Source: a virus
Virus record (IMG/VR): IMGVR_UViG_3300027985_000978
Coordinates: 17,680-81,679 of that record
DNA: 64,000 nucleotides
Strand: one strand, 5' to 3'
Under the pieces are notes generated by a model that was given only the letters and a program-made list of their open reading frames with translations, searched no databases and was not told where the DNA came from. The position numbers were made by a program, and so were the translations under genes. Below, piece by piece: positions 793 through 64,000 of the stretch. Every line of letters starts with the position of its first letter. Position 1 is the stretch's first letter.

Positions 793-874
793 CAATCCCC
801 CACGGGTTGAGGCTAGGTGCAATCGGGCGAATTGCTAAGGACGGGAGCCGACTGTCAAGATCCACCAGCCGAAC

Positions 875-883
875 TGATTAGGA
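875..883 (+). repeat. TGATTAGGA dispersed element, copy between portal and darB
   Basis: This is one of ten copies of a short element whose full form is TGATTAGGAAGT. Here it reads TGATTAGGATGA, 42 bp before the darB start and 83 bp before the divergent portal start. The function is unknown; it may be a regulator site for late operons. Confidence 0.6.
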
Positions 884-924
884 TGATAGCATTAATGAAC
901 CTGTCAACGTAAAAAGGGCATTAA

Positions 925-3900
925 ATGAACGCTATCGTAAGCAAGGCGGTTGCGTCTGTAATAGCGGCTCGAACACTTGAGCAGCTGTTAGGGACGTATG
1001 ACGCGCTATTTCCATTACTCCACCAGCAGGACGAACCAGCGCCAGTGTTTGGCGTAGAAAAACAATCTGGTGTATCCATCGAACGAACACGAAAAGAAGC
1101 GAACGCGGCGGCGCAAGCTATTCTGAAGCGTGTCGGAACCGATCACACGTTACTGACCGAAGAAGACAAAGCTGTTCTACGCCAGTATTCAGGGTTAGGC
1201 GGGATTGGTGGCTCTATCCATGAATACTACACGCCGCAATGGGTGGCCGAAGGCATTTGGGACGCTATGGCCGCCAATGGCATGGGTGCGGGTAACTTCT
1301 TGGAACCGTCAGCCGGTGCGGGTGTTTTCCACGGAACCAAACCACGCGGCGCAATCATGACCGCAACCGAAATCGATCAAACCAGCTCACAGATCAACCA
1401 GCTGTTACACCCTGAAGATCGCGTCAACAATTCATCCTTTGAAACGCTGGCTGTCAGTTCTGAAGATGGAACGTGGGACGGTGTAGTGGGTAACGTTCCT
1501 TTCGGTGAAACTCGCGGTAGTTATGGCGCACTCGATCCAGAATACGCGCATGTAAAGTATGTCGATGCGTATTTTGTCACTCGTATGCTGGACAAAATCA
1601 AAGCCGGTTCGATGATGTGCGTAGTAGTTCCAATGCGTATCGTGTCCGGCGCAAAATTTAAAGCGTTCCGCAAAGAAATATCTCTCAAGGGCGAATTCTT
1701 AGGTGCACACCGTTTGCCGTCTGGAACGTTCAGCAACAACGGAACGGATACCGCCACAGATATTCTTGTCATGCGTAAGCATCCAGAAGAGTTTTCAGAT
1801 TTGGTGAACTCACGAAAAACCACCGATCTGAAAGCGGCTAACGTGTTATGGGATACATTCATCAATGGCAAATGGTTTGAGACCTCCGAAGGGAAACGTT
1901 TTATCCACGGTGAACAATCTACAACCGGATCAGGAAAGTTTGCCCGTGAAGTAGTTGATCGGGGAAATATCACTAATGCACAGATCAAAGAGAAATTAGC
2001 GCACAAGTTTGAAAGCCGTATTGATTGGTTATCACTGGAACTGTCAGAACCAGTTGCGCCGGTTTACGGTGAAGGTGACGAACGCCTGATTAATGGCCGC
2101 TGGAACCGTCTTGTCAATGGTCAATGGCAGGTTATTTCCCTGACTGCAAGCGACGGTGACACAATCGACGCGGGAACGTATGGCGTGAACTCTATCAGCC
2201 AGCTAACCACCATGATTAATCAATCCCCACTGAATGCACTGGAACTGTCATACGATCAAGTTATGGCTGTTGCGCGTGACTTCCCACGGGTGACAGAAGG
2301 CGTGATCGCTGATGCTATTAAACTTGCGAACGCACAAGATCCGAAGTATCGAGAGCGCATTATCCGTGGCGTGCTGATTGGTCAGCGTATCCGCGACATG
2401 AACGACGAAGTGAACCAGACCGGCATAATTCCGATTGCTACCGCAGCTGAATTGCGCGACTTGGTGAACAACGAGATCGGAAAATATGGTGTTTCAGCTG
2501 GTGATAAGAAGATCGCAGCGCTAACCGGTGGCACTTCTGCCGCTGGCGCATGGAACCAGTTTGTTAGTGCAACGGATATCAACGGCAAATTCTCTGCCCT
2601 GCTTACCGGTACACTGCAACGCGGGGACACGAAAGCCTTTGATGATACCGACGCATCCCAAACTGTCGCCTATTTGTTCGGTCAATTAAACCTGAACCCT
2701 GTCGATTTAAGCGACTTTAACGATCTGTACCGTGGCGCAACTCCACCTACCCTGTCAGACCTTGCCAAAGTATCCGGTATCGCTATCACACCAGACGGCA
2801 TGTTAGCGCCAATGGATCGGGCAACGTGCGGAAATGTCGTTGAAACAACCAACAAACTGATCGCAGCAATGGCAACCACCAGCGATCCGGCGATTCTCAG
2901 TAACTACCAAGCGCAGTTAGACATGATTAACAAGCGCCGTAAGTGGTCTAAAGTCGATGACATTGAGATCACCATGTCTGCTAAATGGCTGCCGCGCCGC
3001 TATGCGCTCGATTTCCTGAAAGAAGTCGGTTATGAGGCTTTTGAATACTCAAAAGTGACCGACGTTGACGGCGAACTGGTTGATGACAAGGAATACAACG
3101 GCTTTGATGGTGTCTTCAGTGGCTACGGTATCCGTGATGGGAAAAAGCGCTCAAACCAAAACGAGCAGTTTGAACGCCAGTTAGAGAACTATCTAAACGG
3201 GGTAACAGTTCGATCCAGTGATGCTGCCGCAGCTGCCGGTTATCGCGCCCGTATTGCTGATATCGAGAAGCGTTTTGCAATCTGGATTCGCCAGCATGAT
3301 GACGTTCAGAAACTAACCGATCTCTACAATGACAAATTCAATGGATACGTCCCATTTGATCATCATGATGGTGATTTAGAGCTAGGGGACGATTACCTGT
3401 CCGGTAAAGTTGTGCCGTTCGGTTATCAGTGTTCTGGCGTGCGCCGTCTGTCTGAAGATGGGCGCGGGATTCTGGCGTTTGATACCGGCCTTGGTAAAAC
3501 TGCATCTGCCCTGTCGCTGGTGGCGTATAACACGAAGCTGGGCCGCGCTAAACGTACTGCAATCGTCGTCCCGCTGGCTGTGTTCGAGAACTGGTATCAC
3601 GAAGCAAAAACAGTTTATAGCGCAAAATTCTTTGAACAGTGTTTGTTTGCTGGCATTGAACCGGTACACACTCAAGACGGCATGATTGAGCAGGAAGCCG
3701 TACTGGATGACGAAGGCAACCCACGAACCGGCGCGAACGGTGAACCACTGACCCGCGATAAGCTCCGCCAGCTGTCCGGCGCTGAAATCACAGCACGCAT
3801 GAACTCAATTCCGCAAACAAACAAAGCTGTCGTTGTCATGACTAAAGAGCAGTTTGCATCTATTCCTATGCGCCCTGAATCAATCGAAGCGCGTTCAGAA

Positions 3901-6900
3901 AAGATGGTGGACTTGGGTATTGATTCCGGCAAGCTGCAAGCAATGGCTAAGAACCACACGCAAGCCATGAAAAAAGAGCGTGCCAAGGAAAAAGCCGCTG
4001 ACACTGGAACCCTGAAAAAGCTCGATATTCCTTACTTCGAAGATATGGGATTCGATAACGTCGTGATCGACGAAGGCCATAACTACCGGAACAGCTACAA
4101 GGCAGGCCGCGAAAGCAGCAAACTTGCTTATTTGCCAACGGCGCAATCAGCAAAAACAGCTATCGATCTGGCGGTTAAATCTGACTATCTGCGCAACAAG
4201 TACGACGGGCGCGGCGTCACCTTGCTGACCGCAACCCCAACGGTGAATAGTCCGATCGACATTTTCAACATGCTCTCTCACGTATTAAGCCCTGAAGAAT
4301 GGCAGGCTTACGGTATCTATGACGCTGACGACTTTGTGAAAGTATTCGGGGAAACCGAAGAAGTCATGGTGCAGAAACTATCCGGCCAAGTTGAGAACAA
4401 GCAAGGCTTAACAGGGTTTAAAAACTTAACCGGCCTACGCTCACTCTTCCACCGCTGGGTAAATCTGAAAGACGCTAAATCAGTGTCAGATACGGTCAAA
4501 ATCCCTGAACTGGACGAGCAGAAAACTGAAGCGCCAATGACTGAAGAACAAGCGCAAATCTATGAAACATTGCGTAAACGCGCCGAAGACCTTAGTCACG
4601 CTAAAGCATTAGGCATTGTCGAAACAGACGAAAACGGCTGGCCGATCCCTGAAGATTCTATCTTTGCCATTATTCGAGACATGGATCGCGTCTGTACTGA
4701 TACTGACTTGTATTACAAGACTATGACGTTCCGATTCCCAGCAAACAAGCTGGAAGAGGTTAAGCAGCTGGCCGCCGATTTACCCACTTCAAAAACTATC
4801 AAAGCAACTGCCAGTGACAAAGAGGATGAAGAGGCCGACACGGAAAGTTTAACCACGGATAGCGGCGCTAAAATCACCCCCGACGAGCACGCGGTTACAT
4901 TGGTTGTTCACGAAGCGTTTGAAGATGAAGTCATGAAGCGACTGAAAAAGTTCGGACTTGATAAGAAAGACGTTTCACACCCCGTTACACCAAAATATGC
5001 GCGTCTGTTGGAAAACCTGAAAAATGCCTATGAGAACGGCGGCAAACAGATCATCTTCACTGAAGAAAAGAGCCAGCATAACAAGTTAGAGCGCATCATT
5101 GCGCATCACTTGGGGATTCCATCTGAAGAAATCAGCATCATCAATGCTGCCACCGTCAAGGGTAAAGGATCTGAAGATGATTTACGCGGATTAGAACTGA
5201 TTGGTGCAGCCTTCAACGAAGGCAAAGTAAAAATCCTGATCTGTAACAAAAAAGCCGAAGTGGGCGTGAACTTGCACCACGGCACAACTGATATCCATCA
5301 CCTGACCTTGCCTTGGACACCTGCAAGCATTAAGCAGCGTAACGGGCGCGGCGCTCGCGTGGGTTCAAAGCAAGACAAGGTGCGCGTCTGGTATTACGTG
5401 GGTAAAGGTTCGTTTGATGAATTCCGCTTAGAAACACTGAAACACAAGGCGAACTGGCAAAATGAACTATTCACCTCCGATGCGGAACGCATGAAAAATG
5501 CCGACGCAGACGATGGCGCAGAAGCATCTTTGCTACTGGCTCAAGACCCTGAACAGCGTAAAGCGCGTATCGCAGAGAACCAGCGTAAAGCTGAAGAGAA
5601 GATCAAACAGGCGGCAATAATCCGCGCCAATATCGACCTGCACAACTTCCTGAAAGCGGCGCATGATGCAGCTGGCGATCCTGAAGTGGTAGCCCGTGAT
5701 TTAGAGCAGGCCAAGGCATTAATGGCAACGCTAAACCGGACGTATCAGAACGCGGTAAATAACGCCAATCAAAACCGTGAATATGCAGCTGAGTCTACTA
5801 CCATGAAAGACTGGTATCTCAGAAATGCAAAAGACTATGATCGAAAAGCTAAAGCCGCTCTGCCTAAGCTGAACAGCGCCCGAAAAGACGTTGCACGCTT
5901 AGAGCGTCAGTCTACCCGTATCGCTTCAGCCACCAGCACAATGAAACGCTTACGGCCTGAACTGGAACGCGCCCAGCGTGACAACCTGTTAGAGATCACC
6001 AGTGACCTGTTAGACAACGGTAGCCAATACCTGACAGACGGCAAGAAACTAATCAAGGCTGGAAGCATCTATAACAGCGTATCCGGTGGCAAAATTGCGC
6101 GTGTCGAATCATTCAACTTTGACACCAAATCAGCCGAAGTCACGTTGCTGTACCTGAAGGGCGAATACCAAAGCAGCAAGTTAAATACGACGACTTGGTG
6201 GGGGCTTGAGATTTTCGGCAACGAAACCAGTATCAGCATGTCCGAGATAGAAAAACTTCAGAAAATGATGAGCTCACTGGATCTGACCAAAGCGGTTGAG
6301 TTACTGGATAAAGCCGAGTTCAGCGAATACTTACAAGATGGAACACTGACGCTAACCGGTAGCGGTTATGTTTTTTATGATGATGAAGCTGGGTTCCAGT
6401 ATGAATCGTCGTACAGGATGGATAAGAAAGACCTGTCAAAAGTCATCTATCCAGATCCAAAAGATGAAGCGCTGAAGGCGAAAATGGCCGCGTGGCTGTT
6501 GAAAGATCGCAGCATGTTAAGCGACTACCGCTCCGAATATAACTGGATCAAGGCGGTATTCGGTGACAAGCCAACTCAGGCGGTGGAGAACTACGGGGTT
6601 AAAGCGCCAGAGCAAGTCATTAATGAGTGGCTGGCAGGCCGTATGAAAGCCTACAAGGATGCAGCTGACACACAAGGCGAATTGGAGAAACTGAACCGGC
6701 TTGAATCTAATGTTTATGGATGGAGTTTTGATTCATTCGCATGGCGAAACATGGAAACCCCGCCAGAATATCAGAATATCAGTGACTTTGAGGCTGCCGT
6801 TCAGCGTGGTAAAGAGATCCTGAAGTCTGAAGCCAAGACACTGACTGATGCAGCACAGGCGCGTGCAGCGACGAAATGGCAGGCGAAATGGACGATTGCA

Positions 6901-7638
6901 GAATCTCAGACACCAGACCAGCGAAAAGACCGCCTGAACTGGTTAGATCTGCAACTCAAAAACGCCAGTTCCGCTTACACCAAATCCAAGGAACTGATCA
7001 AAGAAGCTGACACCCCATACACTGAAGACGGCGAATTTAACCTTGCGCTGGTGGTCAGTGATCTGAAGGCTGTCGGTTTCCTTGAGCGTGACCCGTCCGA
7101 GTTCACCCCTAAAGTGCTGATCGCTCAATTCCAGAGTGCGGCATTAGGGATTAACAGTTACAGCAACAAGGGCAAGATCTTTAACTGGATACTGGAACTG
7201 GAAAGCTCAAAAATCCCAGCACCGGAACCAGTGAAAGAGGACGCCCAGCCGGAACCGGAACCAGCCAAGGAAGAGGAAAAAACGGCGGCTGAAACAGTTG
7301 TCAAAGCAGTGAAGCAAACCGGCGAACTACCGCAGATTGGTAAATTAATCATGCGCGTGAACACTAAATCGTTCACAACTGGCGGCGGCAAATATAAATC
7401 CCGTGGCGGCTGGCGTACTTCCCCTACTCGCACAATGGAAGTGGGCGAATGGATTGGCATTCAAGATCCTGAAGCGTTTGAAGGTGTTCTGTATAAAAAC
7501 AAGGATACGCTCAAGAAACGGATCGGCATGGAAAATACAATCTTTGCTAAAAATGCGTCGTCTGAATATCCTGATGCGTGGTGGTTCATCCCAGCTGATA
7601 CCGACCCAGCATTACTAACTGAAATCTTAGGGAGCTAA
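925..7638 (+). CDS. darB: DarB-like anti-restriction protein: N6-methyltransferase plus strawberry-notch-type helicase
   Basis: A 2237-residue polyvalent virion protein, close to the roughly 2255 residues of P1 DarB. DarB is injected with phage DNA and shields it from type I restriction. The methyltransferase part shows motif I FLEPSAGAG (about 125-133) and motif IV NVPFG (190-194; N-x-P-F class). A superfamily 2 helicase follows, with Walker A DTGLGKT (853-859), DEGH (1049-1052) and motif VI QRNGRGARVG. Between them and after them lie long helical and coiled-coil-like stretches. The C-terminus has a proline/glutamate-rich linker before a small terminal domain. The ATG at 925 follows AAAAAGGGC. 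The gene stands alone with one small follower. Motif IV has V where NPPF/Y is usual, so catalysis should be tested, not assumed. Confidence 0.93.
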   Translation: MNAIVSKAVASVIAARTLEQLLGTYDALFPLLHQQDEPAPVFGVEKQSGVSIERTRKEANAAAQAILKRVGTDHTLLTEEDKAVLRQYSGLGGIGGSIHEYYTPQWVAEGIWDAMAANGMGAGNFLEPSAGAGVFHGTKPRGAIMTATEIDQTSSQINQLLHPEDRVNNSSFETLAVSSEDGTWDGVVGNVPFGETRGSYGALDPEYAHVKYVDAYFVTRMLDKIKAGSMMCVVVPMRIVSGAKFKAFRKEISLKGEFLGAHRLPSGTFSNNGTDTATDILVMRKHPEEFSDLVNSRKTTDLKAANVLWDTFINGKWFETSEGKRFIHGEQSTTGSGKFAREVVDRGNITNAQIKEKLAHKFESRIDWLSLELSEPVAPVYGEGDERLINGRWNRLVNGQWQVISLTASDGDTIDAGTYGVNSISQLTTMINQSPLNALELSYDQVMAVARDFPRVTEGVIADAIKLANAQDPKYRERIIRGVLIGQRIRDMNDEVNQTGIIPIATAAELRDLVNNEIGKYGVSAGDKKIAALTGGTSAAGAWNQFVSATDINGKFSALLTGTLQRGDTKAFDDTDASQTVAYLFGQLNLNPVDLSDFNDLYRGATPPTLSDLAKVSGIAITPDGMLAPMDRATCGNVVETTNKLIAAMATTSDPAILSNYQAQLDMINKRRKWSKVDDIEITMSAKWLPRRYALDFLKEVGYEAFEYSKVTDVDGELVDDKEYNGFDGVFSGYGIRDGKKRSNQNEQFERQLENYLNGVTVRSSDAAAAAGYRARIADIEKRFAIWIRQHDDVQKLTDLYNDKFNGYVPFDHHDGDLELGDDYLSGKVVPFGYQCSGVRRLSEDGRGILAFDTGLGKTASALSLVAYNTKLGRAKRTAIVVPLAVFENWYHEAKTVYSAKFFEQCLFAGIEPVHTQDGMIEQEAVLDDEGNPRTGANGEPLTRDKLRQLSGAEITARMNSIPQTNKAVVVMTKEQFASIPMRPESIEARSEKMVDLGIDSGKLQAMAKNHTQAMKKERAKEKAADTGTLKKLDIPYFEDMGFDNVVIDEGHNYRNSYKAGRESSKLAYLPTAQSAKTAIDLAVKSDYLRNKYDGRGVTLLTATPTVNSPIDIFNMLSHVLSPEEWQAYGIYDADDFVKVFGETEEVMVQKLSGQVENKQGLTGFKNLTGLRSLFHRWVNLKDAKSVSDTVKIPELDEQKTEAPMTEEQAQIYETLRKRAEDLSHAKALGIVETDENGWPIPEDSIFAIIRDMDRVCTDTDLYYKTMTFRFPANKLEEVKQLAADLPTSKTIKATASDKEDEEADTESLTTDSGAKITPDEHAVTLVVHEAFEDEVMKRLKKFGLDKKDVSHPVTPKYARLLENLKNAYENGGKQIIFTEEKSQHNKLERIIAHHLGIPSEEISIINAATVKGKGSEDDLRGLELIGAAFNEGKVKILICNKKAEVGVNLHHGTTDIHHLTLPWTPASIKQRNGRGARVGSKQDKVRVWYYVGKGSFDEFRLETLKHKANWQNELFTSDAERMKNADADDGAEASLLLAQDPEQRKARIAENQRKAEEKIKQAAIIRANIDLHNFLKAAHDAAGDPEVVARDLEQAKALMATLNRTYQNAVNNANQNREYAAESTTMKDWYLRNAKDYDRKAKAALPKLNSARKDVARLERQSTRIASATSTMKRLRPELERAQRDNLLEITSDLLDNGSQYLTDGKKLIKAGSIYNSVSGGKIARVESFNFDTKSAEVTLLYLKGEYQSSKLNTTTWWGLEIFGNETSISMSEIEKLQKMMSSLDLTKAVELLDKAEFSEYLQDGTLTLTGSGYVFYDDEAGFQYESSYRMDKKDLSKVIYPDPKDEALKAKMAAWLLKDRSMLSDYRSEYNWIKAVFGDKPTQAVENYGVKAPEQVINEWLAGRMKAYKDAADTQGELEKLNRLESNVYGWSFDSFAWRNMETPPEYQNISDFEAAVQRGKEILKSEAKTLTDAAQARAATKWQAKWTIAESQTPDQRKDRLNWLDLQLKNASSAYTKSKELIKEADTPYTEDGEFNLALVVSDLKAVGFLERDPSEFTPKVLIAQFQSAALGINSYSNKGKIFNWILELESSKIPAPEPVKEDAQPEPEPAKEEEKTAAETVVKAVKQTGELPQIGKLIMRVNTKSFTTGGGKYKSRGGWRTSPTRTMEVGEWIGIQDPEAFEGVLYKNKDTLKKRIGMENTIFAKNASSEYPDAWWFIPADTDPALLTEILGS

Positions 7639-7641
7639 AGA

Positions 7642-8064
7642 ATGATTTCTGAAACGATTATCCCAACCGCTGAAGACATGACCCCTTTGATGGAAGAGGC
7701 GTTAGCAGACGGGCGAACAGAAGAGGAATTTATCAGCGCGTTTACGGGTGGCCTATTGGCTACCCTTAAAGCTGACCCGCGCCAGTATCGCAGCTATGGG
7801 CCGTACTGGTGGCCGTTGAAATCTATGCTGATTGATGCCGGTTATGCTGGCGTTTTTGGCTCAGAACTTGAACAGGGAACGTTGCAGCATTACACGCTTG
7901 ATTCACAAGCTATGACACTGGCGGCGGCATGGGCCTATCAGCAATACCAGATCGGTGAAGGCAAATTGAGAACATCGAGCCACCAGTTAGAAATGGAAGA
8001 CGGCGAAACATACGAATATGAGTTAGCCGACACGGAAATGGAAATGTTTATCAGCAATCGCTAA
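7642..8064 (+). CDS. Small protein following darB, position of P1 Ulx
   Basis: A 140-residue acidic protein that starts 3 bp after the darB stop with the Shine-Dalgarno GGGAG inside the darB end, so it is translationally linked to darB. It is rich in E, Y and W (RQYRSYGPYWWPLKSMLIDAGY near residues 50-70) and has no recognisable catalytic motif or membrane segment. P1 carries a protein of about this size, Ulx, next to darB; the assignment here is by place and length only. A terminator follows at once. It may be a cofactor or chaperone of DarB. Confidence 0.6.
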   Translation: MISETIIPTAEDMTPLMEEALADGRTEEEFISAFTGGLLATLKADPRQYRSYGPYWWPLKSMLIDAGYAGVFGSELEQGTLQHYTLDSQAMTLAAAWAYQQYQIGEGKLRTSSHQLEMEDGETYEYELADTEMEMFISNR

Positions 8065-8070
8065 CCCTCA

Positions 8071-8100
8071 AGCCCTGATATCTAAATCAGGGCTTTTTTA
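8071..8100 (+). terminator. Rho-independent terminator of the darB operon
   Basis: A 9-bp stem AGCCCTGAT/ATCAGGGCT with a 6-nt loop is followed by TTTTTT. It lies 6 bp after the stop codon of the darB follower. Confidence 0.9.
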
Positions 8101-8113
8101 CGCCCCCTATTGT

Positions 8114-8156
8114 AATTCATGTCTGATATGAATTAATATCTACCCAATGGGCGTAT
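8114..8156 (+). promoter_or_regulatory. Two-dyad promoter, copy 1
   Basis: Dyad A (8114-8134) reads AATTCATGTC-T-GATATGAATT (arms 9 of 10 matching). Dyad B (8141-8151) is TACCCAATGGG, followed by CG and TATTAA (8153-8158), which can serve as a -10 box. The same pair of dyads, in the same order relative to the gene, precedes the genes starting at 53372 and 56126. Dyad B sits between likely -35 and -10 boxes, the usual place of a repressor operator. Confidence 0.7.
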
Positions 8157-8203
8157 TAATCGCCTTCCCACACATCAAGAAGCGGATTAACGGGGAGTTA
8201 CAC

Positions 8204-9001: not shown

Positions 9002-9013
9002 GGGGATCGCATC

Positions 9014-9571: not shown

Positions 9572-9574
9572 ATC

Positions 9575-56126: not shown

Positions 56127-56158
56127 GATATAGATTCCTTATCTGGTGGCTGGTGGCG

Positions 56159-56166
56159 CTGTAGTT
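56159..56166 (+). repeat. Chi octamer in the promoter gap of the 56126 gene
   Basis: An intergenic GCTGGTGG preceded by CTGGTG, that is a near-tandem copy; no coding constraint applies here. Confidence 0.75.
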
Positions 56167-56199
56167 GTCCGGTTCAAATGAACCATTGAGATAACAATA

Positions 56200-56246
56200 T
56201 ACCCAATGGGTACATGCTGCAATATATTTTTCATGTCTGATATGAA
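56200..56246 (-). promoter_or_regulatory. Two-dyad promoter, copy 3
   Basis: In gene direction: dyad A TTCATATC-A-GACATGAA (56230-56246, 7 of 8), 17 bp, then dyad B TACCCA-T-TGGGTA (56200-56212, perfect), then TATATT as -10. It drives the gene starting at 56126. Confidence 0.72.
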
Positions 56247-56259
56247 TTATTTAAACAGA

Positions 56260-56280
56260 AAAGCCCCATAACGGGGCTTT
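56260..56280 (-). terminator. Terminator after cre
   Basis: An 8-bp stem AAAGCCCC/GGGGCTTT with a 5-nt loop and TTTT in minus-strand direction, 47 bp after the cre stop. Confidence 0.88.
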
Positions 56281-56327
56281 GTTCTATCTTGATAACCAAC
56301 TATTAGGCTATTCCGAATGGTTCACCG

Positions 56328-57440
56328 CTACACTTTACCGGCACGCCGGATCGCCATTGCGCTATCTTTTACGAACATATCCCGACAATACCGGATCACC
56401 ATACGTTCACTGGCCCAGCGCCCAGCCTGCATGATCTGAAGGGCGTTGAACCCAGCCGCCGCCAAGTCTTGCGCCGCACCGACACGGGCAGAGTGACCAG
56501 ACAGGCACGGGATACCGTAGTATTGCAGCCCCAGCACTTCCCACACACGGGCGAACACGCGCTCAATGGTTTTCACCGATAGCGGCTCATTACCGGTGCT
56601 TGGTTTGTTGTACCGGTTCACCTTGCCGAAGAGTGGCACGTCTTCACCCAGCTTACGGCCTGACAATGACAGGTAATCAATAATGATACTTACGGCCTGC
56701 CGTGACAGGGCCGCTTTGTCTGGTTCGCCCGAATGGTTTGTTTTGGTGATTGGGATAGTCAAAACACCTGTACCGTCTGAAAACACTTTGATATGACGCC
56801 CCCGAACCCGCGCCAATTCTTGAGCGCGTAGCATGGATTCATAAGCCACGGCCATGATTGCCAGATCGCGCCGGTTCGCTATGCTTTCACTGTATCGCCA
56901 CATATCCACCAACTGATCTAAATTGTGCTCATGAAAGCCTGCCGCCTGCTCTACTGTTTCTTCATGCTGGACTTTGTTTCTGACAATGCCCTCATAAGTA
57001 CCTTTGAATAGTTCGTCATTCGTTGGATCGGGGCAGCCGGTTACTTTATGGATTCTTGAGATCGCCCAGCGGTCAATCGCCAGTGTATTTCTATGCACCA
57101 GCTGGCCGCGTTGTTTGATGTAAATCTCTGCCGTTCCGACACTGGCCGGTAACGAACACGCGCCCACATCGAGACACCAACGATCAAACCGTTCCCATGC
57201 GCTTTTGATAGATTGCATCGTTCTGGCTGAATATCTATCGCCGCGCTCATGGAACCCGATCAAGAACCGGTTGATCGCGTCCTGTACTGGCTGATAGTTC
57301 TGGATCTCAATTCCGCGCAATTGCGCATTAGCAATCAGACCTGAAAGCGCTTCCGTGGTGATATTCTCGAATGCGACCTGATTTAGCACATTTTCCACGT
57401 TGGCTAAATTGCTGGTGGTAGTTACTAAGTTTTGAGCCAT
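56328..57440 (-). CDS. cre: Cre-family tyrosine recombinase (VCre/Vika-like)
   Basis: 370 residues. Catalytic residues visible: Arg205 (ESMLRAQELA), Lys233 (ITKTNHSG), His316 and Arg319 (SGHSARVGAAQDL), Trp342 (AGRWASERM) and nucleophile Tyr351 (VIRYCRD). The stretches HRNTLAIDRWAISRIHKVTGCPDP and LTIPITKTNHSGEPD are very like remembered VCre sequence and less like P1 Cre. In phage-plasmids the enzyme circularises redundant DNA and resolves plasmid dimers. It stands alone with a terminator after it and a 34-bp lox-like site 65 bp upstream. Confidence 0.93.
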   Translation of the reverse strand: MAQNLVTTTSNLANVENVLNQVAFENITTEALSGLIANAQLRGIEIQNYQPVQDAINRFLIGFHERGDRYSARTMQSIKSAWERFDRWCLDVGACSLPASVGTAEIYIKQRGQLVHRNTLAIDRWAISRIHKVTGCPDPTNDELFKGTYEGIVRNKVQHEETVEQAAGFHEHNLDQLVDMWRYSESIANRRDLAIMAVAYESMLRAQELARVRGRHIKVFSDGTGVLTIPITKTNHSGEPDKAALSRQAVSIIIDYLSLSGRKLGEDVPLFGKVNRYNKPSTGNEPLSVKTIERVFARVWEVLGLQYYGIPCLSGHSARVGAAQDLAAAGFNALQIMQAGRWASERMVIRYCRDMFVKDSAMAIRRAGKV

Positions 57441-57494
57441 AGAACACCTATTTTTCTAATTAATTGGGCGCGTCAGATTATATACCCCCATAGT

Positions 57495-57550
57495 GAGAAT
57501 ATCTATCAATGTCTAATAATTGCCATTGTACGACATTAAGATAAGTTCTC
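57495..57550. other. lox-like recombination site upstream of cre
   Basis: A 56-bp imperfect dyad. Its 34-bp core is TCAATGTCTAATA (57506-57518), spacer ATTGCCAT (57519-57526), TGTACGACATTAA (57527-57539): arms match 9 of 13 and the outer GAGAA-type flanks extend the symmetry to 19 of 28 positions. The core has the lox size (13-8-13) and shares arm bases with remembered VloxP (TCAATTTC...) and SloxP (...TGTCCGATA). It lies 66 bp before the cre start. Alternative: an operator for cre. Confidence 0.7.
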
Positions 57551-57929
57551 ATTCTCAACTAAAGGCCGGTCTTGGTGGCTGACCGGAAAGGGTTCATTCA
57601 GCGCTTAAAAGGGGTAGGGCGGTTATTTGGTCTGACTGGTAAAAATTTATCATGGATGAATGTTAAGGTTTGACCAATTCGACGACAATTATTTTACATA
57701 TATCCGAAACTATATATTTCCGATTTAGTTTTTATATCCAATGGTGGTTATTTTTAAAGTAATTAAATTTAATCCGGTATTGTTTGTAACCGTTGGATAT
57801 ATTTGGGTCATTAACTCGGTTGAGTCTGGTGTATTCTGAGCGGTTAATTATTTGCCATCTTTACATGATTCAGGGTTTATTTATAACGCCAAAACGAGTA
57901 TAAATTTGCGCTTACAAAAACTAACAATT
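57551..57929. promoter_or_regulatory. AT-rich control region between cre and the plus-strand accessory genes
   Basis: No credible gene. It holds a hairpin CCGGTC/GACCGG (57566-57586), the imperfect inverted repeat TATATCCAATGGT / ACCGTTGGATATA (57733-57745 and 57789-57801, 12 of 13 matching) and several TATATCC or TATATTTCC units. A promoter such as TTGAGT-18-TTAATT near 57820 may drive the plus-strand genes. Uncertain. Confidence 0.5.
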
Positions 57930-58142
57930 ATGAGCCTGAATATGACCTCTGATTTACCTCGATTCGATATTGAATCATTAGTAGCGAACACCGGAACCGA
58001 AAACCCGTTAGATCTCTGGCTGGCGTATCAAAGCAATATCCCCGCAAGTACACCAATCAATGTATTATCCCAAATGAAAGCTGAATTTCTTAATCAGGTG
58101 TCCGACTTACTATCAGGTTATCAGGAGATAATGGATGACTAG
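57930..58142 (+). CDS. Unknown 70-residue protein
   Basis: Start placed at the ATG at 57930 (second in-frame ATG at 57942); there is no clear Shine-Dalgarno. Mixed composition (DLPRFDIESLVANTGTENPLDLWLAYQSNIPASTP). It overlaps the next gene by 8 bp, so the two form one unit. No match recognised. Confidence 0.5.
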   Translation: MSLNMTSDLPRFDIESLVANTGTENPLDLWLAYQSNIPASTPINVLSQMKAEFLNQVSDLLSGYQEIMDD

Positions 58143-58455
58143 CGAACGCGCTACCAGCGTAAAGGAACTTGTTTCCACCATTTTAGCCCTTACTGGCGGC
58201 GTGCTTATCGCTGCCGGATTCGTAAATGTAGCTGATTATGCTGGAATACCGATACTTGCCGGTATTTTATTTGTTATTCTCAGCTTCCTAACCATTCCTC
58301 CAATCTTTATTTCATGCGTGAGTGCTGGCCTGATGCTGTGCGCCATGACAGTGAATCACCTGTACGCGCACGACACACTAACGGTATGTCTGGTATATCT
58401 GGCGTTTCTAATCTTAGACCTGTTCTGCGCCGATCAAGTTTTAAAGAAATTCTGA
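58135..58455 (+). CDS. Small multi-pass membrane protein
   Basis: 106 residues, almost all hydrophobic: three to four membrane segments (STILALTGGVLIAAGFV, IPILAGILFVILSFL, IFISCVSAGLMLCAMTV, LTVCLVYLAFLILDLF). Translationally coupled to the upstream 70-residue gene. It could be an exclusion or holin-like protein; no family assigned. Confidence 0.65.
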   Translation: MTSERATSVKELVSTILALTGGVLIAAGFVNVADYAGIPILAGILFVILSFLTIPPIFISCVSAGLMLCAMTVNHLYAHDTLTVCLVYLAFLILDLFCADQVLKKF

Positions 58456-58530
58456 CACCCCTCTCTTTTGTGCGCTTTGCTTATCTTTTGTCCGGTTCTA
58501 TCCTAATCATATTGATTCTAAAATCCGGTT

Positions 58531-58550
58531 GTGCGTTACTTGTAACGCAC
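58531..58550 (+). promoter_or_regulatory. Operator-like dyad with GTTAC-GTAAC core, copy 1
   Basis: GTGCGTTAC-TT-GTAACGCAC, 9-bp perfect arms, 48 bp before the ATG at 58598. Its core is the reverse complement of the dyad upstream of parM (62535-62546). Confidence 0.7.
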
Positions 58551-58597
58551 CACTGAACTAAAAAAATAGATGCAACGATAAACAGGAGTAGAGAACC

Positions 58598-59332
58598 ATG
58601 TCACAGGATGTAGCGCTCTTTATGGAGTTTTGCGAACTCCGAGAAGCCATCATTGAAGAGATCAAAGCGATTGCCGTTTTTTCTGAAGAGAAGAACGGTA
58701 AAACCGTGCGCCCGATTGGGGTCATTAAAACCAATGCTGAATATTTTAAATTTGAGAAATATTTAGCAAGGTGGCGTGAACTGGTTAATCAATTAAATGA
58801 AATTAACCCTGTTCGCTATCCGTTAAATGCTGAGAAGTTTTCTTTAATGCCGCAATTATATACCGGCGTTGAATCATTCTCTGTTTATATTTCCCCTGCT
58901 ACGCTCTCTCGCAAATATGAGAAAGCGAAAATAGTTTCCCGCATGGAAAAATATATTGATTCATTATCCCATGATTCCCGTAATACAGGCGACTGGACAA
59001 TTACCAATCGCGTGAAACATGAATTGGAGGTCATGAATAAAGATAAGGAAACCTATTACCGGCTGCGGAATACTTGCAGCACAGATATGACTTGCGTATT
59101 AACGTATGAGAACGGATTAACTGATAAAGTAAAAATCCCGTTTTGCGGCGCGTTATTATTTAATAATGAAAGATTGATAGATTTAAAACCGACGAAAAAA
59201 TTAAATACCCGTACCGACAGTTTTGATTATTTAGGCGTGAACCCTATCGCCTGTTCGTTGTCATTGGCTGGCAACCTGTACCGTGAATCAGAAATAATAA
59301 AAGCGCGGGAACGTCGCGCCATGAGTAAATAA
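58598..59332 (+). CDS. Unknown 244-residue protein
   Basis: ATG behind AACAGGAGTAGAG. Helical and K/E-rich with several Asn-rich, AT-rich codons; segments LFMEFCELREAIIEEIKAIAVFSEEKNGK and SFSVYISPATLSRKYEKAKIVSRMEKYIDSL. Its codon use is more AT-rich than the tail genes, suggesting recent acquisition. No domain recognised. Confidence 0.65.
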   Translation: MSQDVALFMEFCELREAIIEEIKAIAVFSEEKNGKTVRPIGVIKTNAEYFKFEKYLARWRELVNQLNEINPVRYPLNAEKFSLMPQLYTGVESFSVYISPATLSRKYEKAKIVSRMEKYIDSLSHDSRNTGDWTITNRVKHELEVMNKDKETYYRLRNTCSTDMTCVLTYENGLTDKVKIPFCGALLFNNERLIDLKPTKKLNTRTDSFDYLGVNPIACSLSLAGNLYRESEIIKARERRAMSK

Positions 59333-59365
59333 CATCATGATCTTGTGTATTCCAGTTGGTGGCGG

Positions 59366-60871
59366 TTAAACCTCTTCCGCCATCAAGTCTTTCGCCCAAC
59401 CAGAAACACTCTCCCGTTCTTCGCGCATTTCATCCGTGATGACCATGTTGGCTGGCGTATAATCCGCTAAAAGTGAGAAGCAGTAGGTATCCCAGCGATC
59501 AGGAGATGGTAAGCCTAACTGCTGTCTCATTTTCTCTTTCGGCATCATGCACCACTGGCCGGATTCGTTGATTTTGCACGGCATACGGGACGCCTGATCG
59601 AGCGTCTTCTCATGTCCATCTAGGCGCATCCGTCCCGACTTCACCGCATCCCGCGCCATGATGTTGGCGAACGCACGTTTATTCAGGAACCGGCTCTTAT
59701 CATCCGTATTGAAACACGGCGCACCCCAGCGGATACGGATCACGTTAAACCCAGCCTCTTCAAGAATGGTTGCGGTATCTGCACCAACCCCGTCGCCATC
59801 CACGCAAACCGTGATGTTTGGATATTTTTCTTTGGGATATTCAGCGGCCACCAGCCGCCCGAAATTAACCGGATCAATCGTACCGGCCCATTCTTTAATT
59901 TCAGACGGAACAACACGCCTTTCATATCTTGCACCAGACATCCGCACTAAATTAGCCACAGAACTATCTCGGCCATTCCCCACGTCCACCAGCAACACCC
60001 AGCCCCAGCCTTTTTCTAGTTTAGGCATTGCTTTAGTAGCTTTTTCGCATTCATCCCGACTTAATAAGTTACCGGAAACACTACGCGGAAATTCCCCACG
60101 GACTTTAATTAAATATTCCGGCGCATCCCGACTGCCGCCATATTCCCTTAATTTAACCTTGATAAATTGCACGGTAACTAAAGGCGATTCTTCTGAGTTA
60201 AGTTTTATTGCGGTATAGCCGTCTTTATCGTCTTTATTTCTTTTTGCTAACCGGTGATGTGTGTCATAGAAATAACCGCTTGGGCGTGTCGGCTGGGACA
60301 ATAATAATATTCTGTTATCATCCTGTGTTAATGCGCCGGTAATAACGCCGAATGCTTTGTCAGATACACCTGAAGCCTCGTCAATAATATAAAACAGGTG
60401 ATCGGCGTGCTCACCGGCCAACGATTCTTCATTCCCTAAACGACACCCTTTCGGAGATGTAAACCATACGCCTTTATGCGTGTTCTCGTAGAACATGGTT
60501 TCTGTAATGGTGAAGTATTGACGTATCCACGGATGACGGCGGCAAAGCTCGTTATAATTGATTTTCAGATATTTCCATACAACCTGTTGCACCTGTGCGA
60601 TCTTGTTCGCCACGATGATTACACGGGCATTTGGGAACAACAGCATATACAGCAATACCATGATTGATGTCATGTCTGATTTACCTGTACCGTGCCCTGA
60701 ACTCACCGATGTTTTCGAGCCGGTCTGCTGGGTCGATTCAATGATTAATTCCTGCTGCCAAGTTGGTTCTTTGCCGAATAGCTCCACGGCGGCCTGTATC
60801 CAGTTATACCGGTACTTCATCACCAGTTCGGGATAGCGCGGGTCTTTAGTGATGGTGCGTAGCTTTGCCAT
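59366..60871 (-). CDS. pacB: Terminase large subunit (PacB)
   Basis: 501 residues (P1 PacB about 494). Walker A GHGTGKS (59-65), Walker B LFYIIDE (159-165), coupling motif LLLSQPT and a nuclease core with VLLVDVGNGRDSS and VCVDGDGVGAD, the acidic metal ligands. It pumps DNA into the procapsid and cuts it. The ATG overlaps the pacA stop (TAATG). Confidence 0.93.
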   Translation of the reverse strand: MAKLRTITKDPRYPELVMKYRYNWIQAAVELFGKEPTWQQELIIESTQQTGSKTSVSSGHGTGKSDMTSIMVLLYMLLFPNARVIIVANKIAQVQQVVWKYLKINYNELCRRHPWIRQYFTITETMFYENTHKGVWFTSPKGCRLGNEESLAGEHADHLFYIIDEASGVSDKAFGVITGALTQDDNRILLLSQPTRPSGYFYDTHHRLAKRNKDDKDGYTAIKLNSEESPLVTVQFIKVKLREYGGSRDAPEYLIKVRGEFPRSVSGNLLSRDECEKATKAMPKLEKGWGWVLLVDVGNGRDSSVANLVRMSGARYERRVVPSEIKEWAGTIDPVNFGRLVAAEYPKEKYPNITVCVDGDGVGADTATILEEAGFNVIRIRWGAPCFNTDDKSRFLNKRAFANIMARDAVKSGRMRLDGHEKTLDQASRMPCKINESGQWCMMPKEKMRQQLGLPSPDRWDTYCFSLLADYTPANMVITDEMREERESVSGWAKDLMAEEV

Positions 60872-62193
60872 TACCAGACCTCTTCCACGGGTTCGTCTTC
60901 AGAACTGCCGTCAAGGTCTTCCTGAAACTCTGCCAGCCCTTCCGTGGCTTCGTCCTCGTCTATCTCTTGGTATTCCCCTTCTGTGAGCATGTCGCCGCGC
61001 TGGTGGGCCTGTTCATCTGCAAACAGTTGGGCGATCTCGGCGCGACGGCTTGGCAACCAGCTATCATGAATTTCCTTCTGTTTTTCTTGGTAATCACGGG
61101 ACAGGCGTTCCAGTTCTGCATCCGTGATCCCCACATCCTCGTCAACTGGTGGTGTGAGCCATGAGATTTCTTTCTGTAACTCAAGTTTGAGTGATTCAGG
61201 CAGTTTGATACCGCGCATTTCAAATACCTGTGCGGTCTTATGCGCTGACCAGCCAGCACGCTGACGGGCAATCATGATTTTTCGGGTAAGGTCGATCTGC
61301 TGGGTGCGCGTGAGTGGGTGCGCGTCCCGTTCTTCCATGTCTAACTTGCGACTGACTAACAGACTGCGATTGATGGATGATTCTAAGCTGGTGAACTGTT
61401 CGCTAGAGCCAAATATACACTCAGCCTTGGCCCGTGAGCGGGGGATATCATTTCCCAGCGCATCCTTCCACGGTTTGCCGTTGTCATAATCCCGATCAAT
61501 ACCCGCCAGAGTATCGGCTTTAGCACGCATCATTTGCATGTATCGTGCGGTCTGGATCTGGATAATGTGTTTATCCACACTCATGGCAATCGCCATCTCT
61601 TGGATATCCGGCTCCATTCCCACAAAGGCAGCGCAATGACCCCACATCAGACTAGCATCAGCCCTTAACCGATCACGATCAGAAAATTGATCGCCTTCAG
61701 GCTCGGCCAATAACTGATCAAAATCGTCGCTCTGCGCTGCTGTGCCTTCCGCCCCCGTGAGAGCTATTTCGTAACTATTTGATTCTTCTGGTGTTTCATT
61801 TTCTGCATGATCGCTTTGCTGGGTGATCGCTTTTTCAGGTGATCGCTTTTGATTGTCAGAAATGTGATCGCTTTTCGGGGTTTGATCGCTTTTTACAGGC
61901 TGATCGCTCGTCTTCTTACGCTGTTCTGATCGCTTTTTACGGCCTTCTGCCACTGCGCGGCGCACATACTTCGGGATCGCCTGCTTCACTGCACCATTGA
62001 TCGGATCGTCTTCACCTTTCTTTTTAGCTGGCTTTTTCGGCTCCGGTTTCTCTACTTTGATTGAGTTAAATTCACGTCGAACACTATTGACTGACAAGCC
62101 GTGAAGCCTTGCGTACTCTGCCTTCGTTACACCATTCGGGGCGTAATCTTTAGCAAACTGTTCTTTGTGGAATTCCCAATCAATAGTAGCCAT
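60871..62193 (-). CDS. pacA: Terminase small subunit (PacA) containing the pac site
   Basis: 440 residues (P1 PacA about 448). The N-terminus is a helix-turn-helix-like region (TKAEYARLHGLSVNSVRREFNSI), then a linker in which SDQ and SDH recur (KSDQP, KSDQTP, KSDHI, QQSDHA). These are the translation of TGATCG repeats on the DNA. The C-terminal half is helical with an acidic end (DEDEATEGLAEFQEDLDGSSEDEPVEE). In P1 PacA binds and helps cut pac inside its own gene when GATC is Dam-methylated. Place, lengths and pac content agree. Confidence 0.9.
   Translation of the reverse strand: MATIDWEFHKEQFAKDYAPNGVTKAEYARLHGLSVNSVRREFNSIKVEKPEPKKPAKKKGEDDPINGAVKQAIPKYVRRAVAEGRKKRSEQRKKTSDQPVKSDQTPKSDHISDNQKRSPEKAITQQSDHAENETPEESNSYEIALTGAEGTAAQSDDFDQLLAEPEGDQFSDRDRLRADASLMWGHCAAFVGMEPDIQEMAIAMSVDKHIIQIQTARYMQMMRAKADTLAGIDRDYDNGKPWKDALGNDIPRSRAKAECIFGSSEQFTSLESSINRSLLVSRKLDMEERDAHPLTRTQQIDLTRKIMIARQRAGWSAHKTAQVFEMRGIKLPESLKLELQKEISWLTPPVDEDVGITDAELERLSRDYQEKQKEIHDSWLPSRRAEIAQLFADEQAHQRGDMLTEGEYQEIDEDEATEGLAEFQEDLDGSSEDEPVEEVW
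61808..62003. other. pac-like site: cluster of TGATCG hexamers
   Basis: TGATCG on the plus strand at 61808, 61824, 61840, 61865, 61883, 61901, 61927 and 61998. The first seven span 125 bp with spacings 16, 16, 25, 18, 18 and 26. P1 pac consists of seven TGATCA/G hexamers within pacA, controlled by Dam methylation of GATC. Outliers on the same strand occur at 61688 and (as TGATCA) 61715. All are Dam sites. Confidence 0.85.
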
Positions 62194-62213
62194 TGAAACC
62201 CGTCGCCGCCTTC

Positions 62214-62225
62214 ACTTCCTAATCA
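62214..62225 (-). repeat. TGATTAGGAAGT element upstream of pacA
   Basis: Exact 12-mer, here on the minus strand, 21 bp before the pacA start. The only copy on the minus strand. Confidence 0.7.
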
Positions 62226-62248
62226 ATCACCCAAACATCATACATGAC

Positions 62249-62304
62249 TGATCGCATTGTTTGGATAGTTAAGCGATCACGACATGATCGCCGCCACGCG
62301 ATCA
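62249..62304. other. Second GATC hexamer cluster between pacA and parM
   Basis: TGATCG at 62249 and 62285 and CGATCA at 62274 and 62299: two per strand in 56 bp, in the divergent gap. Could be an outer part of pac, a Dam/SeqA-type control site or a promoter switch. Confidence 0.6.
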
Positions 62305-62323
62305 CCTTGGCTGACTGTTTTCC

Positions 62324-62520
62324 CAATGGTTAGAAATGGTTATGAACTGGTACAAAACGGAATTGAACTGGATTAATCAGGCGCTCAGTAGGCATGAATC
62401 AGAACCAACGGAACCGATCAATAAACCAGCAAACGGTTAGAAATGGTTGTTTTGTGACTATTTCAGCGCGTGAAATAGCAACAAATAAACCGTTTATGGC
62501 TTGAAATGGTATTCGTTTGG
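62324..62520 (+). repeat. Helically phased AATGGT repeats upstream of parM (parC candidate)
   Basis: At 62321-62370 successive 10-mers end AATGGT, AATGGT, AACTGG, AAACGG and GAACTG, one per helical turn. GGTTAGAAATGGTT recurs at 62329 and 62435, with further variants AAACCGTTTATGG and GAAATGGTATTCG to 62520. In plasmid R1 the ParR-binding centromere parC is a set of about 11-bp direct repeats just before parM. Divergence of the units makes borders uncertain. Confidence 0.6.
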
Positions 62521-62528
62521 CATAAAAT
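62501..62528 (+). promoter_or_regulatory. parM promoter
   Basis: TTGAAA (62501-62506), 16 bp, TAAAAT (62523-62528). It lies at the end of the phased repeats, as in plasmids whose ParR binds parC and represses. Confidence 0.7.
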
Positions 62529-62534
62529 GAAAGG

Positions 62535-62546
62535 GTTACAAGTAAC
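62535..62546 (+). promoter_or_regulatory. Operator-like dyad GTTAC-AA-GTAAC, copy 2
   Basis: A perfect 12-bp dyad just after the parM -10 box; the same core is at 58531-58550. Confidence 0.7.
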
Positions 62547-62568
62547 GCCTTATCCGGCGTTTATTTTT
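62544..62568 (+). terminator. Attenuator-like hairpin in the parM leader
   Basis: AACGCC-TTATCC-GGCGTT then TTATTTTT, 20 bp before the parM ATG. It overlaps the preceding dyad and could end most transcripts from the promoter. Confidence 0.6.
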
Positions 62569-62587
62569 CACATCAAGGAGCAACGTA

Positions 62588-63691
62588 ATGTCTAAAGAGA
62601 ATCAAGAATTTATCGCACTGGTAGCACTGGACGACGGTTCAGGTAATATTGCGTGCCGGTTTGAAGACACTGATAAACAGGTGTTTGAGAAGTACATCCC
62701 CGCCCGTATCGAACGCGGTTCAGCGGCTGGTTTAGGCGGCTCCGGCATGTCTGCCAACGTATGGGAAACCGAAGAAGGGAATCGTTTCACTGTTCGGAAA
62801 AACCCACTGAAACCCGTATCAACCCTCGATCCAGACTATCAGCTATCTGAAGCAAACCGCGTTCTAGCCCTGCACACCATGAGCAAGGCCGGTTTAGGTG
62901 ATGTGCCTTGCGTTGTTGGCTGTACCATGCCAGCTGAACAGTTCTACAACAAAGGGGACGATCACAACCCTTTTGATGAAGAGCGCCAGAAAGCCAAGGG
63001 CCGCAACCTAATGAAACGGATAACAAACGTTTACGGCGGCATTAAACCCCCTCGCGTTCTGATTGTTCAGGCATTCCCTGAAGGTTTACCGGCGTTTTTC
63101 TGGCTGGCTTATGGTGAACGCCACGGCGAACGCCCTAAATACACAGAAAATCAGACTACACTCATTGTCGATCTTGGTGAGTTCACCGCAGATTTAGCAC
63201 TGGTGGGTTCTGGCGCTGAAGATGAAGTTTTAGCCTATAGCACACATGAGCACGGCATCCACGTCATGGTTGAACGCTTCAGAGCCTTGCTTGCACGGGA
63301 AGGCATACAGGACGCCAAATCAATTCCTACTGCTAACCTTAAAAATATTATCCAGTGCGGCTATATCGGAACTGATCTCGAAACGCCTGAAGCAATCGCG
63401 GCGCGTGTGGATATATCCCACTTGGTAGCTGAAGCGGCTGAATACCTGAATGATTTATTACTGGAAGATATCAGAGAATTAACCCGTGGCGTACAGCTAA
63501 CCCGTATCGGCTTTGTTGGCGGTGGTGCTTACTGGCTGGGTGGTTTAGCGCGTAAAACTTGGAAATATCCGGTTGATATTCCAGACGAGCCAGAATTAGC
63601 CATTGTGCGCGGCGTTCATCTGCTTATGCAGAACGATCAAGCGGCCCTGCTGAAACAGGCACGCGCAAAACTCGCAAAGGAGACTGAATAA
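62588..63691 (+). CDS. parM: ParM/StbA-type actin-like partition ATPase
   Basis: 367 residues, ATG behind CAAGGAGCAACGTA. Actin-fold motifs: phosphate 1 ALDDGSGNI (13-21), phosphate 2 LIVDLGEFTADLAL (about 191-204) and adenosine motif GFVGGGAYWLGG. The protein would form filaments that push plasmid copies apart after binding ParR at parC. P1 itself uses ParA/ParB; an actin system here is a clear difference. The stop TAA is followed directly by the parR-candidate ATG. Confidence 0.9.
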   Translation: MSKENQEFIALVALDDGSGNIACRFEDTDKQVFEKYIPARIERGSAAGLGGSGMSANVWETEEGNRFTVRKNPLKPVSTLDPDYQLSEANRVLALHTMSKAGLGDVPCVVGCTMPAEQFYNKGDDHNPFDEERQKAKGRNLMKRITNVYGGIKPPRVLIVQAFPEGLPAFFWLAYGERHGERPKYTENQTTLIVDLGEFTADLALVGSGAEDEVLAYSTHEHGIHVMVERFRALLAREGIQDAKSIPTANLKNIIQCGYIGTDLETPEAIAARVDISHLVAEAAEYLNDLLLEDIRELTRGVQLTRIGFVGGGAYWLGGLARKTWKYPVDIPDEPELAIVRGVHLLMQNDQAALLKQARAKLAKETE

Positions 63692-64000
63692 ATGAGCGTT
63701 AGCGCAAGAGTAACGATCCCTTTTGCATCTGAAGATGGCGGCGTTCTTGGCCGCCTCGGAGATCGCTATGAATCCGGCAAGGATGGGAAAAAGACATTAA
63801 TCAATCAATGCCTTGCTGGTGGCTTCATTCTCAAGGAGTGCGGCCTGATTGATATCGCTCTTGAACTGGATGAACTACCAGCATTCAGGAACGGTAACGC
63901 CAGCCAGCGCCGTGCTATTTTTCTTGCAGAGATGGCTAGACTCATGGGAACCGCTACGACTGTCACTATGCCACCAGCAACAGAGCCGGTACATACAGCC
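63692..64000 (+). CDS. ParR candidate, 3' end outside the window
   Basis: 103 codons open to the window edge; ATG immediately after the parM stop, with AAAGGAG inside parM. The product MSVSARVTIPFASEDGGVLGRLGDRYESGKDGKKTLINQ begins with a beta strand and helix, has a ribbon-helix-helix-like middle (KKTLINQCLAGGFILKECGLI) and an acidic part. This gene order (parM, parR) is that of type II partition systems. The protein would bind the phased repeats upstream and cap the filament. Confidence 0.7.
   Translation, partial: MSVSARVTIPFASEDGGVLGRLGDRYESGKDGKKTLINQCLAGGFILKECGLIDIALELDELPAFRNGNASQRRAIFLAEMARLMGTATTVTMPPATEPVHTA

What the first reader, a model, noticed from the sequence alone, without database searches (positions are those of the whole stretch)
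862..63978. Extreme Chi (GCTGGTGG) enrichment
About 73 GCTGGTGG/CCACCAGC by hand count in 64 kb (about 2 expected by chance; the E. coli chromosome has roughly 0.2 per kb, so this is several times denser). Many are in intergenic gaps (862, 15880, 53473, 53571, 54120, 54836, 56159), and 37474/37481 overlap as a double site. The phage seems to have accumulated the sequence as protection of linear ends from RecBCD or to direct recombination during circularisation, in place of an inhibitor. Orientation is mixed (31 plus, 42 minus).
Basis: partly seen in the sequence, partly recalled or inferred. Interest (0 to 1): 0.82.

Follow-up and report, generated by a model that had tools for sequence, protein, structure and literature searches.

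The report
Chi-rich P1-like phage-plasmid genome
This bacterial virus, a distant relative of phage P1, carries about five times more copies than an E. coli chromosome of the eight-letter "stop chewing, start repairing" signal (Chi) read by the bacterial DNA-degrading machine RecBCD; such enrichment was already known for P1, but comparison with relatives shows that on one side of the DNA-packaging site nearly all signals point the same way, as if to protect the loose DNA end that packaging leaves behind.

Summary
The window has 74 Chi octamers (32 GCTGGTGG, 42 CCACCAGC). Its source record is a complete circular 81.5-kb P1-like phage-plasmid with 94 Chi (1.15/kb). P1 has 0.53/kb and E. coli about 0.2/kb. 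Chi is the commonest octamer. In genes, 77 are seen against 12.1±2.9 after codon shuffling, and every one-mismatch variant occurs only 0-14 times.

Chi is also the top octamer in all 14 complete P1-like genomes counted here, from Enterobacterales, Aeromonas, Vibrio and Photobacterium hosts. It is absent from lambda, P22 and Mu, and low in plasmid relatives that lack most virion genes. No RecT, Erf, lambda-Exo or Gam homologue is detectable. Chi over-representation in P1-like phages is already published (Bobay 2013), as is the RecBCD/circularisation reading for P1. This phage is therefore the densest complete example counted of a known kind.

What may be new: orientation is not simply mixed. 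On the unpackaged side of pac, Chi points so as to stop RecBCD entering at the pac cut. The ratio is 169:41 in 12 genomes and 120:18 in 20 independent loci (p≈2e-8, stratified by gene strand), with no such bias in one-mismatch controls. The window phage alone is not significant (16:6). Function is inferred, not tested.

The parts
1..64000 (.). 74 Chi octamers. + strand (GCTGGTGG): 622, 3516, 7047, 12558, 14041, 15880, 16094, 17255, 19704, 25203, 28448, 29634, 31710, 32184, 34581, 37474, 37481, 38449, 41925, 43519, 44285, 45094, 48177, 48219, 48657, 50964, 51424, 53577, 56149, 57411, 60999, 63815. - strand (CCACCAGC): 862, 1020, 2876, 5930, 9835, 12767, 15658, 17924, 21471, 24044, 26999, 29557, 29928, 31368, 31929, 32856, 33139, 34898, 37590, 37667, 40295, 41711, 42318, 42342, 43770, 44642, 47864, 48901, 49423, 49731, 50429, 51810, 52216, 52412, 53473, 53571, 54120, 54481, 54836, 59848, 59986, 63971
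   Evidence: exact count; top octamer; codon-shuffle z = 22 for the genome's genes
53571..53584 (.). two-way Chi, perfect palindrome CCACCAGCTGGTGG, intergenic
37474..37488 (+). two overlapping Chi in the same direction, GCTGGTGGCTGGTGG
61808..62008 (-). probable pac site: array of GCGATCA repeats (seven TGATCGC at 61808-61933 on the + strand) inside pacA, at the same place in the gene as the TGATC[A/G] hexamers of P1 pac
60871..62193 (-). PacA (small terminase/pacase A)
   Evidence: phrog_1711 E 4e-21
59366..60871 (-). PacB (large terminase), 76-78% identical to Aeromonas phage-plasmids, 57% to P1
47736..48437 (-). Ref-like RecA-dependent nuclease, a host-RecA recombination accessory
   Evidence: PF16786 E 9e-21; present in 12 of 17 records searched
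56328..57440 (-). tyrosine recombinase in the position of P1 Cre
   Evidence: PF00589 E 2e-13; 27-55% identity to those of relatives
925..7638 (+). DarB-like antirestriction methylase/helicase
   Evidence: phrog_1685 E 0
38845..40587 (-). major capsid protein homologue (P1 gp23 type)
   Evidence: phrog_1014 E 6e-135; 36% to P1
62588..63691 (+). ParM/StbA-type plasmid partition protein
   Evidence: PF06406 E 4e-13

Best explanation
This is a P1-like phage-plasmid that depends on the host RecBCD/RecA pathway and has been selected to carry Chi about every 870 bp. P1-like phages package DNA by the headful from pac on a concatemer. Packaging pulls one side of the pac cut into the head and leaves the other side as a bare double-strand end; infection later delivers linear DNA whose two ends are also bare. 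RecBCD loads on such ends and degrades DNA until it meets Chi in the right orientation, then makes a RecA-coated 3' strand. Dense Chi limits the loss to a kilobase or two and turns each end into a recombination end, which rebuilds concatemers and circles. On the unpackaged side of pac most Chi point to stop RecBCD coming from pac. On the packaged side, where headful ends of both directions should fall, Chi are dense in both orientations. Shown: enrichment, exactness of the octamer, family breadth, lack of known recombinases and Gam, polarity at pac across the family. Inferred: that RecBCD acts at the pac-left end, and that the benefit is end protection plus recombination.
For: Enrichment and exactness. 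Family-wide: Chi is the first-ranked octamer in 14 P1-like genomes (window phage, P1, P7, D6, JK004, Citrobacter, Serratia, three Aeromonas, Photobacterium, three Vibrio), 0.50-1.15/kb; lambda, P22 and Mu have 0, T7 7. Two Leclercia plasmids with 77% identical PacB but almost no virion genes drop to 0.33 and 0.17/kb, so the signal follows lytic growth. No RecT/Erf/YqaJ/Gam; Ref nuclease kept. Polarity: 20 kb on the unpackaged side of pac, 169 vs 41 in 12 genomes; the pivot scan peaks at pac; none of 20,000 random pivot sets reaches it. Stratified by genome and gene strand OR 3.1, p 7e-8, one-mismatch controls OR 1.26, p 0.07. Independent set of 20 non-redundant PacB loci: 120 vs 18 left of pac, 116 vs 95 right, OR 5.7, p 2e-8, controls OR 1.06, p 0.78; 18 of 18 untied loci agree; in minus-strand genes left of pac 22 vs 4. 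Density is higher for 5-27 kb on the packaged side, where headful ends should fall.
Against: The window phage alone does not show significant polarity (16 vs 6 against 41 vs 31 elsewhere, p 0.14). A peptide-preserving shuffle reproduces the polarity within genes (0.80 expected against 0.82 seen, p 0.26), but about 70% of the shuffled Chi on that side fall on real Chi positions, so that test is partly circular. Some sites are shared by descent between close relatives (18 of 35 between two Vibrio plasmids). The packaging direction is taken from P1 biology, not measured here. No wet-lab evidence.
Confidence: 0.75

Rival explanations
1. Chi is dense only because of coding bias: leucine/valine/glycine/alanine-rich proteins and host-like codon use make GCTGGTGG common.
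For: Chi contains frequent codons CTG and GTG; sense-strand sites are favoured in several relatives.
Against: Codon shuffles give 12 against 77; one-mismatch octamers are rare; intergenic density is higher than genic.
Confidence: 0.02
2. Chi serves only the injected linear DNA: it protects virion ends and promotes circularisation.
For: Known RecA/RecBCD circularisation of P1 (PMC10028697); dense Chi in both orientations 5-27 kb on the packaged side of pac.
Against: Does not predict one-way orientation on the unpackaged side of pac.
Confidence: 0.15
3. Chi was picked up to stabilise the prophage plasmid or to look like 'self' to the host (replication-fork repair, avoidance of CRISPR spacer capture), not for the lytic cycle.
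For: E. coli chromosomes also over-represent Chi (PMC3784561); Chi limits CRISPR adaptation in E. coli (established knowledge).
Against: Plasmid relatives that lack most virion genes have low Chi; density exceeds the E. coli chromosome about fivefold; polarity switches at pac, not at an origin (P1 origins lie 28-39 kb away).
Confidence: 0.06

Closest known systems
Escherichia phage P1 (NC_005856)
   Same: Same core gene set (DarB, DarA, DdrB, Ulx, Sit, gp23, tail, Ref, PacA/PacB), Chi as top octamer, pac repeats inside pacA, polarity left of pac 12:5.
   Different: P1 has 50 Chi (0.53/kb) against 94 (1.15/kb); partition is ParA/ParB in P1 and ParM-like here; most shared proteins are only about 25-60% identical.
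Aeromonas phage-plasmids NZ_CP121796 and NZ_CP110646
   Same: Nearest complete relatives (47-49 shared proteins, PacB 76-78%), Chi top octamer at 0.90-0.93/kb.
   Different: Higher G+C (57-59% against 49%); Chi positions mostly not shared (3 of 10 and 3 of 13 in alignable DNA).
Chi-rich lambdoid, T5-like and P1-like phages lacking recombinases (Bobay et al. 2013, PMC3784561)
   Same: No recombinase or Gam, Chi over-represented; the paper already names P1-like phages among the strongest cases.
   Different: In the passages read, that paper tests abundance and map position in lambdoids, not orientation relative to pac.
Cronobacter phage JK004
   Same: P1-like with almost the same density (103 Chi, 1.10/kb).
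   Different: Different host and larger genome (93.8 kb).

Membership tests
P1-like phage-plasmid (punavirus relatives) | P1-type pacase (PacA + PacB) with pac repeats inside pacA | tested here: met
   PacB 57% to P1 over 97% of its length; PacA phrog_1711; repeat array at pacA nt 190-386 against 193-374 in P1
P1-like phage-plasmid (punavirus relatives) | P1-type virion genes and defence proteins (gp23, sheath, Sit, DarA, DarB, DdrB) | tested here: met
   34 proteins with P1 homologues
P1-like phage-plasmid (punavirus relatives) | Plasmid maintenance genes | tested here: met
   ParM/StbA-like partition gene; a ParA/ParB pair as in P1 was not seen
P1-like phage-plasmid (punavirus relatives) | Cre/lox-type circularisation | tested here: inconclusive
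   Tyrosine recombinase in the Cre position, but no clear lox-like repeat found
Chi-dependent (Rec-, Inh-) phage | No phage recombinase | tested here: met
   RecT, ERF and YqaJ absent, controls found; other recombinase families not searched one by one
Chi-dependent (Rec-, Inh-) phage | No RecBCD inhibitor | tested here: inconclusive
   Gam absent; Abc2, gp5.9-like or unknown inhibitors not excluded
Chi-dependent (Rec-, Inh-) phage | Chi over-represented beyond composition and codon use | tested here: met
Chi-dependent (Rec-, Inh-) phage | Phage growth depends on RecBCD acting at Chi | not testable with these tools
   needs infection experiments

The most novel reading that the evidence does not exclude
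P1-like headful phages as a family (enterobacteria, Aeromonas, Vibrio) carry a direction-coded Chi barrier on the unpackaged side of pac: selection sets orientation as well as density, so that RecBCD entering at the end abandoned by the packaging motor is switched to recombination within 1-2 kb. The genome thereby records the direction of packaging and where free DNA ends arise. The same phages also reveal the Chi sequence used by hosts where it was uncertain (GCTGGTGG in Vibrio and Aeromonas).
Probability: 0.6. Interest if true: 0.65.

Novelty: new member of a known kind. Interest (0 to 1): 0.52.

Why it matters
It shows that a phage can live with RecBCD by writing the host's own 'repair' signal about once per kilobase, and it gives a sequence-only readout of where free ends arise in a phage life cycle. 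The pac-linked polarity turns an old question, which DNA ends RecBCD attacks during headful packaging, into a direct test. Because the enrichment holds in Vibrio and Aeromonas relatives, such phages can help to settle which Chi sequence those hosts use; Buton and Bobay (PMC8022716) detected no polarised Chi in Vibrionaceae and called the Aeromonas signal a possible false positive.

Tried and rejected
1) Compositional artefact: rejected by codon shuffle, one-mismatch controls and intergenic density. 2) Mobile or repeated element carrying Chi: the contexts of the 17 intergenic Chi are unrelated. 3) Simple pooling of polarity was challenged with a peptide-preserving shuffle, which explained it; that shuffle proved partly circular, so gene-strand-stratified tests with one-mismatch controls and an independent set of loci were used instead. 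4) Strictly intergenic Chi: too few to test polarity (5:3). 5) Polarity of the Pseudomonas Chi (GCTGGCGC) in a Pseudomonas relative: 12:2 left of pac, not significant. 6) Capsid-protein scans of viral and genome collections found no relatives; PacB was used instead. 7) Nucleotide search of phages and plasmids: no match. 8) lox-like site: none convincing. 9) The P1 genome paper (Lobocka et al. 2004) is not held, so I could not check whether it already notes Chi orientation near pac.

Full report
WHAT IS THERE. The window holds 32 GCTGGTGG and 42 CCACCAGC, 74 Chi in all; Chi is its commonest octamer. The window is positions 17680-81679 of a virus record of 81,679 bp. The record's first and last 144 bases are identical, so it is a complete circular genome of 81,535 bp with 94 Chi, 1.15 per kb. 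E. coli has about 0.2 per kb (PMC3784561) and P1 50 in 94.8 kb, 0.53 per kb.

IS IT MORE THAN CHANCE. Low-order Markov models expect 2-9 sites in the whole genome. High-order models expect more only because Chi itself supplies the words. Shuffling synonymous codons while keeping protein sequence, codon use and codon-boundary bases gives 12.1±2.9 in genes against 77 observed. All 24 one-mismatch neighbours occur 0-14 times against 94, so selection sees the exact octamer. Intergenic density is twice the genic one, the contexts of intergenic sites are unrelated, and no Chi-free gap exceeds 2.8 kb.

WHAT CARRIES IT. The genome is a distant relative of phage P1: DarB and Ulx, DarA, PacA and gp23-type capsid, PacB and Ref nuclease, and DdrB. 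It has a tyrosine recombinase in the place of Cre and a ParM-type partition gene. A repeat array of GCGATCA lies within pacA where P1 has its pac hexamers. Closest complete relatives are Aeromonas phage-plasmids (PacB 76-78%, 47-49 shared proteins). The host is unknown.

FAMILY COMPARISON. In 14 P1-like genomes from Enterobacterales, Aeromonas, Vibrio and Photobacterium, GCTGGTGG is the first-ranked octamer, at 0.50-1.15 per kb; the window phage is the densest complete genome counted, JK004 next with 1.10. Some 20-kb loci reach 1.35-1.40, so the window phage is not unique. Lambda, P22 and Mu have none, T7 has 7, SSU5 31. Two Leclercia plasmids with a 77% identical PacB but few virion genes have 0.33 and 0.17 per kb. 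Relatives in Psychrobacter, Moraxella, Desulfovibrio and Halomonas-type (Vreelandella) hosts show no enrichment of this octamer. In a Pseudomonas relative the commonest octamer by count is GCTGGCGC (71), the Chi determined for P. syringae (PMC5959072), though it is not outstanding after composition correction in that GC-rich record.

RECOMBINATION FUNCTIONS. Searches for RecT, ERF, Gam and YqaJ families find lambda or P22 as they should, and nothing in the window phage or its relatives. The Ref RecA-dependent nuclease is kept in 12 of 17 records searched. This is the 'no recombinase, no inhibitor' class in which Bobay et al. (PMC3784561) reported Chi over-representation, naming P1-like phages among the strongest cases. 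PMC10028697 states the RecA/RecBCD circularisation reading for P1 and its 50 Chi.

ORIENTATION. I oriented each genome with PacB on + and set pac at zero. In P1, packaging runs from pac towards pacB and lox (established knowledge: lox, a few kb from pac on that side, lies in the terminal redundancy of first headfuls). A pac cut therefore leaves a bare end on the other side. RecBCD entering there meets GCTGGTGG in its active orientation only if it is on the + strand. In the 20 kb on that side 12 genomes have 169 + against 41 - (80% +), against 64% + on average for random 20-kb stretches; the bias peaks at pac and none of 20,000 random pivot sets reaches it. Genes on that side are mostly on +, so I stratified by genome and gene strand: OR 3.1, p 7e-8, while one-mismatch octamers give 1.26, p 0.07. 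A peptide-preserving shuffle accounts for the bias, but most of its expected sites are the real Chi positions, so it cannot decide. I then took an independent set: PacB loci from viral and genome collections, reduced to 39 non-redundant loci not in the first set, 20 of them with at least 8 Chi. Left of pac 120 + against 18 -, right 116 against 95; OR 5.7, p 2e-8; one-mismatch controls OR 1.06, p 0.78; 18 of 18 untied loci agree; in minus-strand genes left of pac 22 + against 4 -. The window phage alone is 16 against 6, not significant.

MECHANISM. Most likely the phage relies on RecBCD/RecA instead of its own recombinase and uses Chi to limit end loss and to make recombinogenic ends. The one-way Chi on the unpackaged side of pac suggests that the end abandoned by the packaging motor is a major substrate. 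The dense two-way Chi 5-27 kb on the packaged side fit the zone where ends of successive headfuls fall: the P1 head holds about 112% of the genome (PMC10999674) and about four genome copies are packaged per concatemer (PMC5557969). Enrichment, family breadth, missing recombinases and polarity are shown; the biochemical steps are inferred.

VERDICT. Observation confirmed. The basic phenomenon is already known for P1-like phages, and this is an extreme new member. The pac-linked polarity is, as far as I could check in the held library, not described there, but the P1 genome paper was not available.

Noticed in passing
window 876, 11825, 12353, 21722, 40608, 47741, 50260, 50310, 50678, 58501, 62217 (17 copies in the genome): A repeated motif TTGATTAGGAAGT, nearly all intergenic, probably the operator of a C1-like repressor; relatives have variants such as GTTAGGAA and ATTCCTAA among their top octamers.
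   Followed up: partly
window 62588-63691: ParM/StbA-type actin-like partition gene next to pac, in place of P1's ParA/ParB.
   Followed up: partly
G000 1-17679 (L003): Several kb of small minus-strand genes with no homologue in any of the relatives compared, lying on the unpackaged side of pac.
   Followed up: no
L227, L229 (Psychrobacter loci with a P1-like PacB): CGCTGGCA/GCTGGCAAG is the top octamer, a possible Chi candidate for Moraxellaceae; mostly from two loci.
   Followed up: partly
NZ_CP102376 and NZ_CP031103 (Leclercia plasmids): P1-like pac and partition regions on plasmids without most capsid and tail genes; PacB of NZ_CP031103 matches in two pieces.
   Followed up: partly
Pseudomonas plasmid NZ_CP070504: P1-like PacB relative in which GCTGGCGC, the P. 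syringae Chi, is the commonest octamer by count (71).
   Followed up: partly
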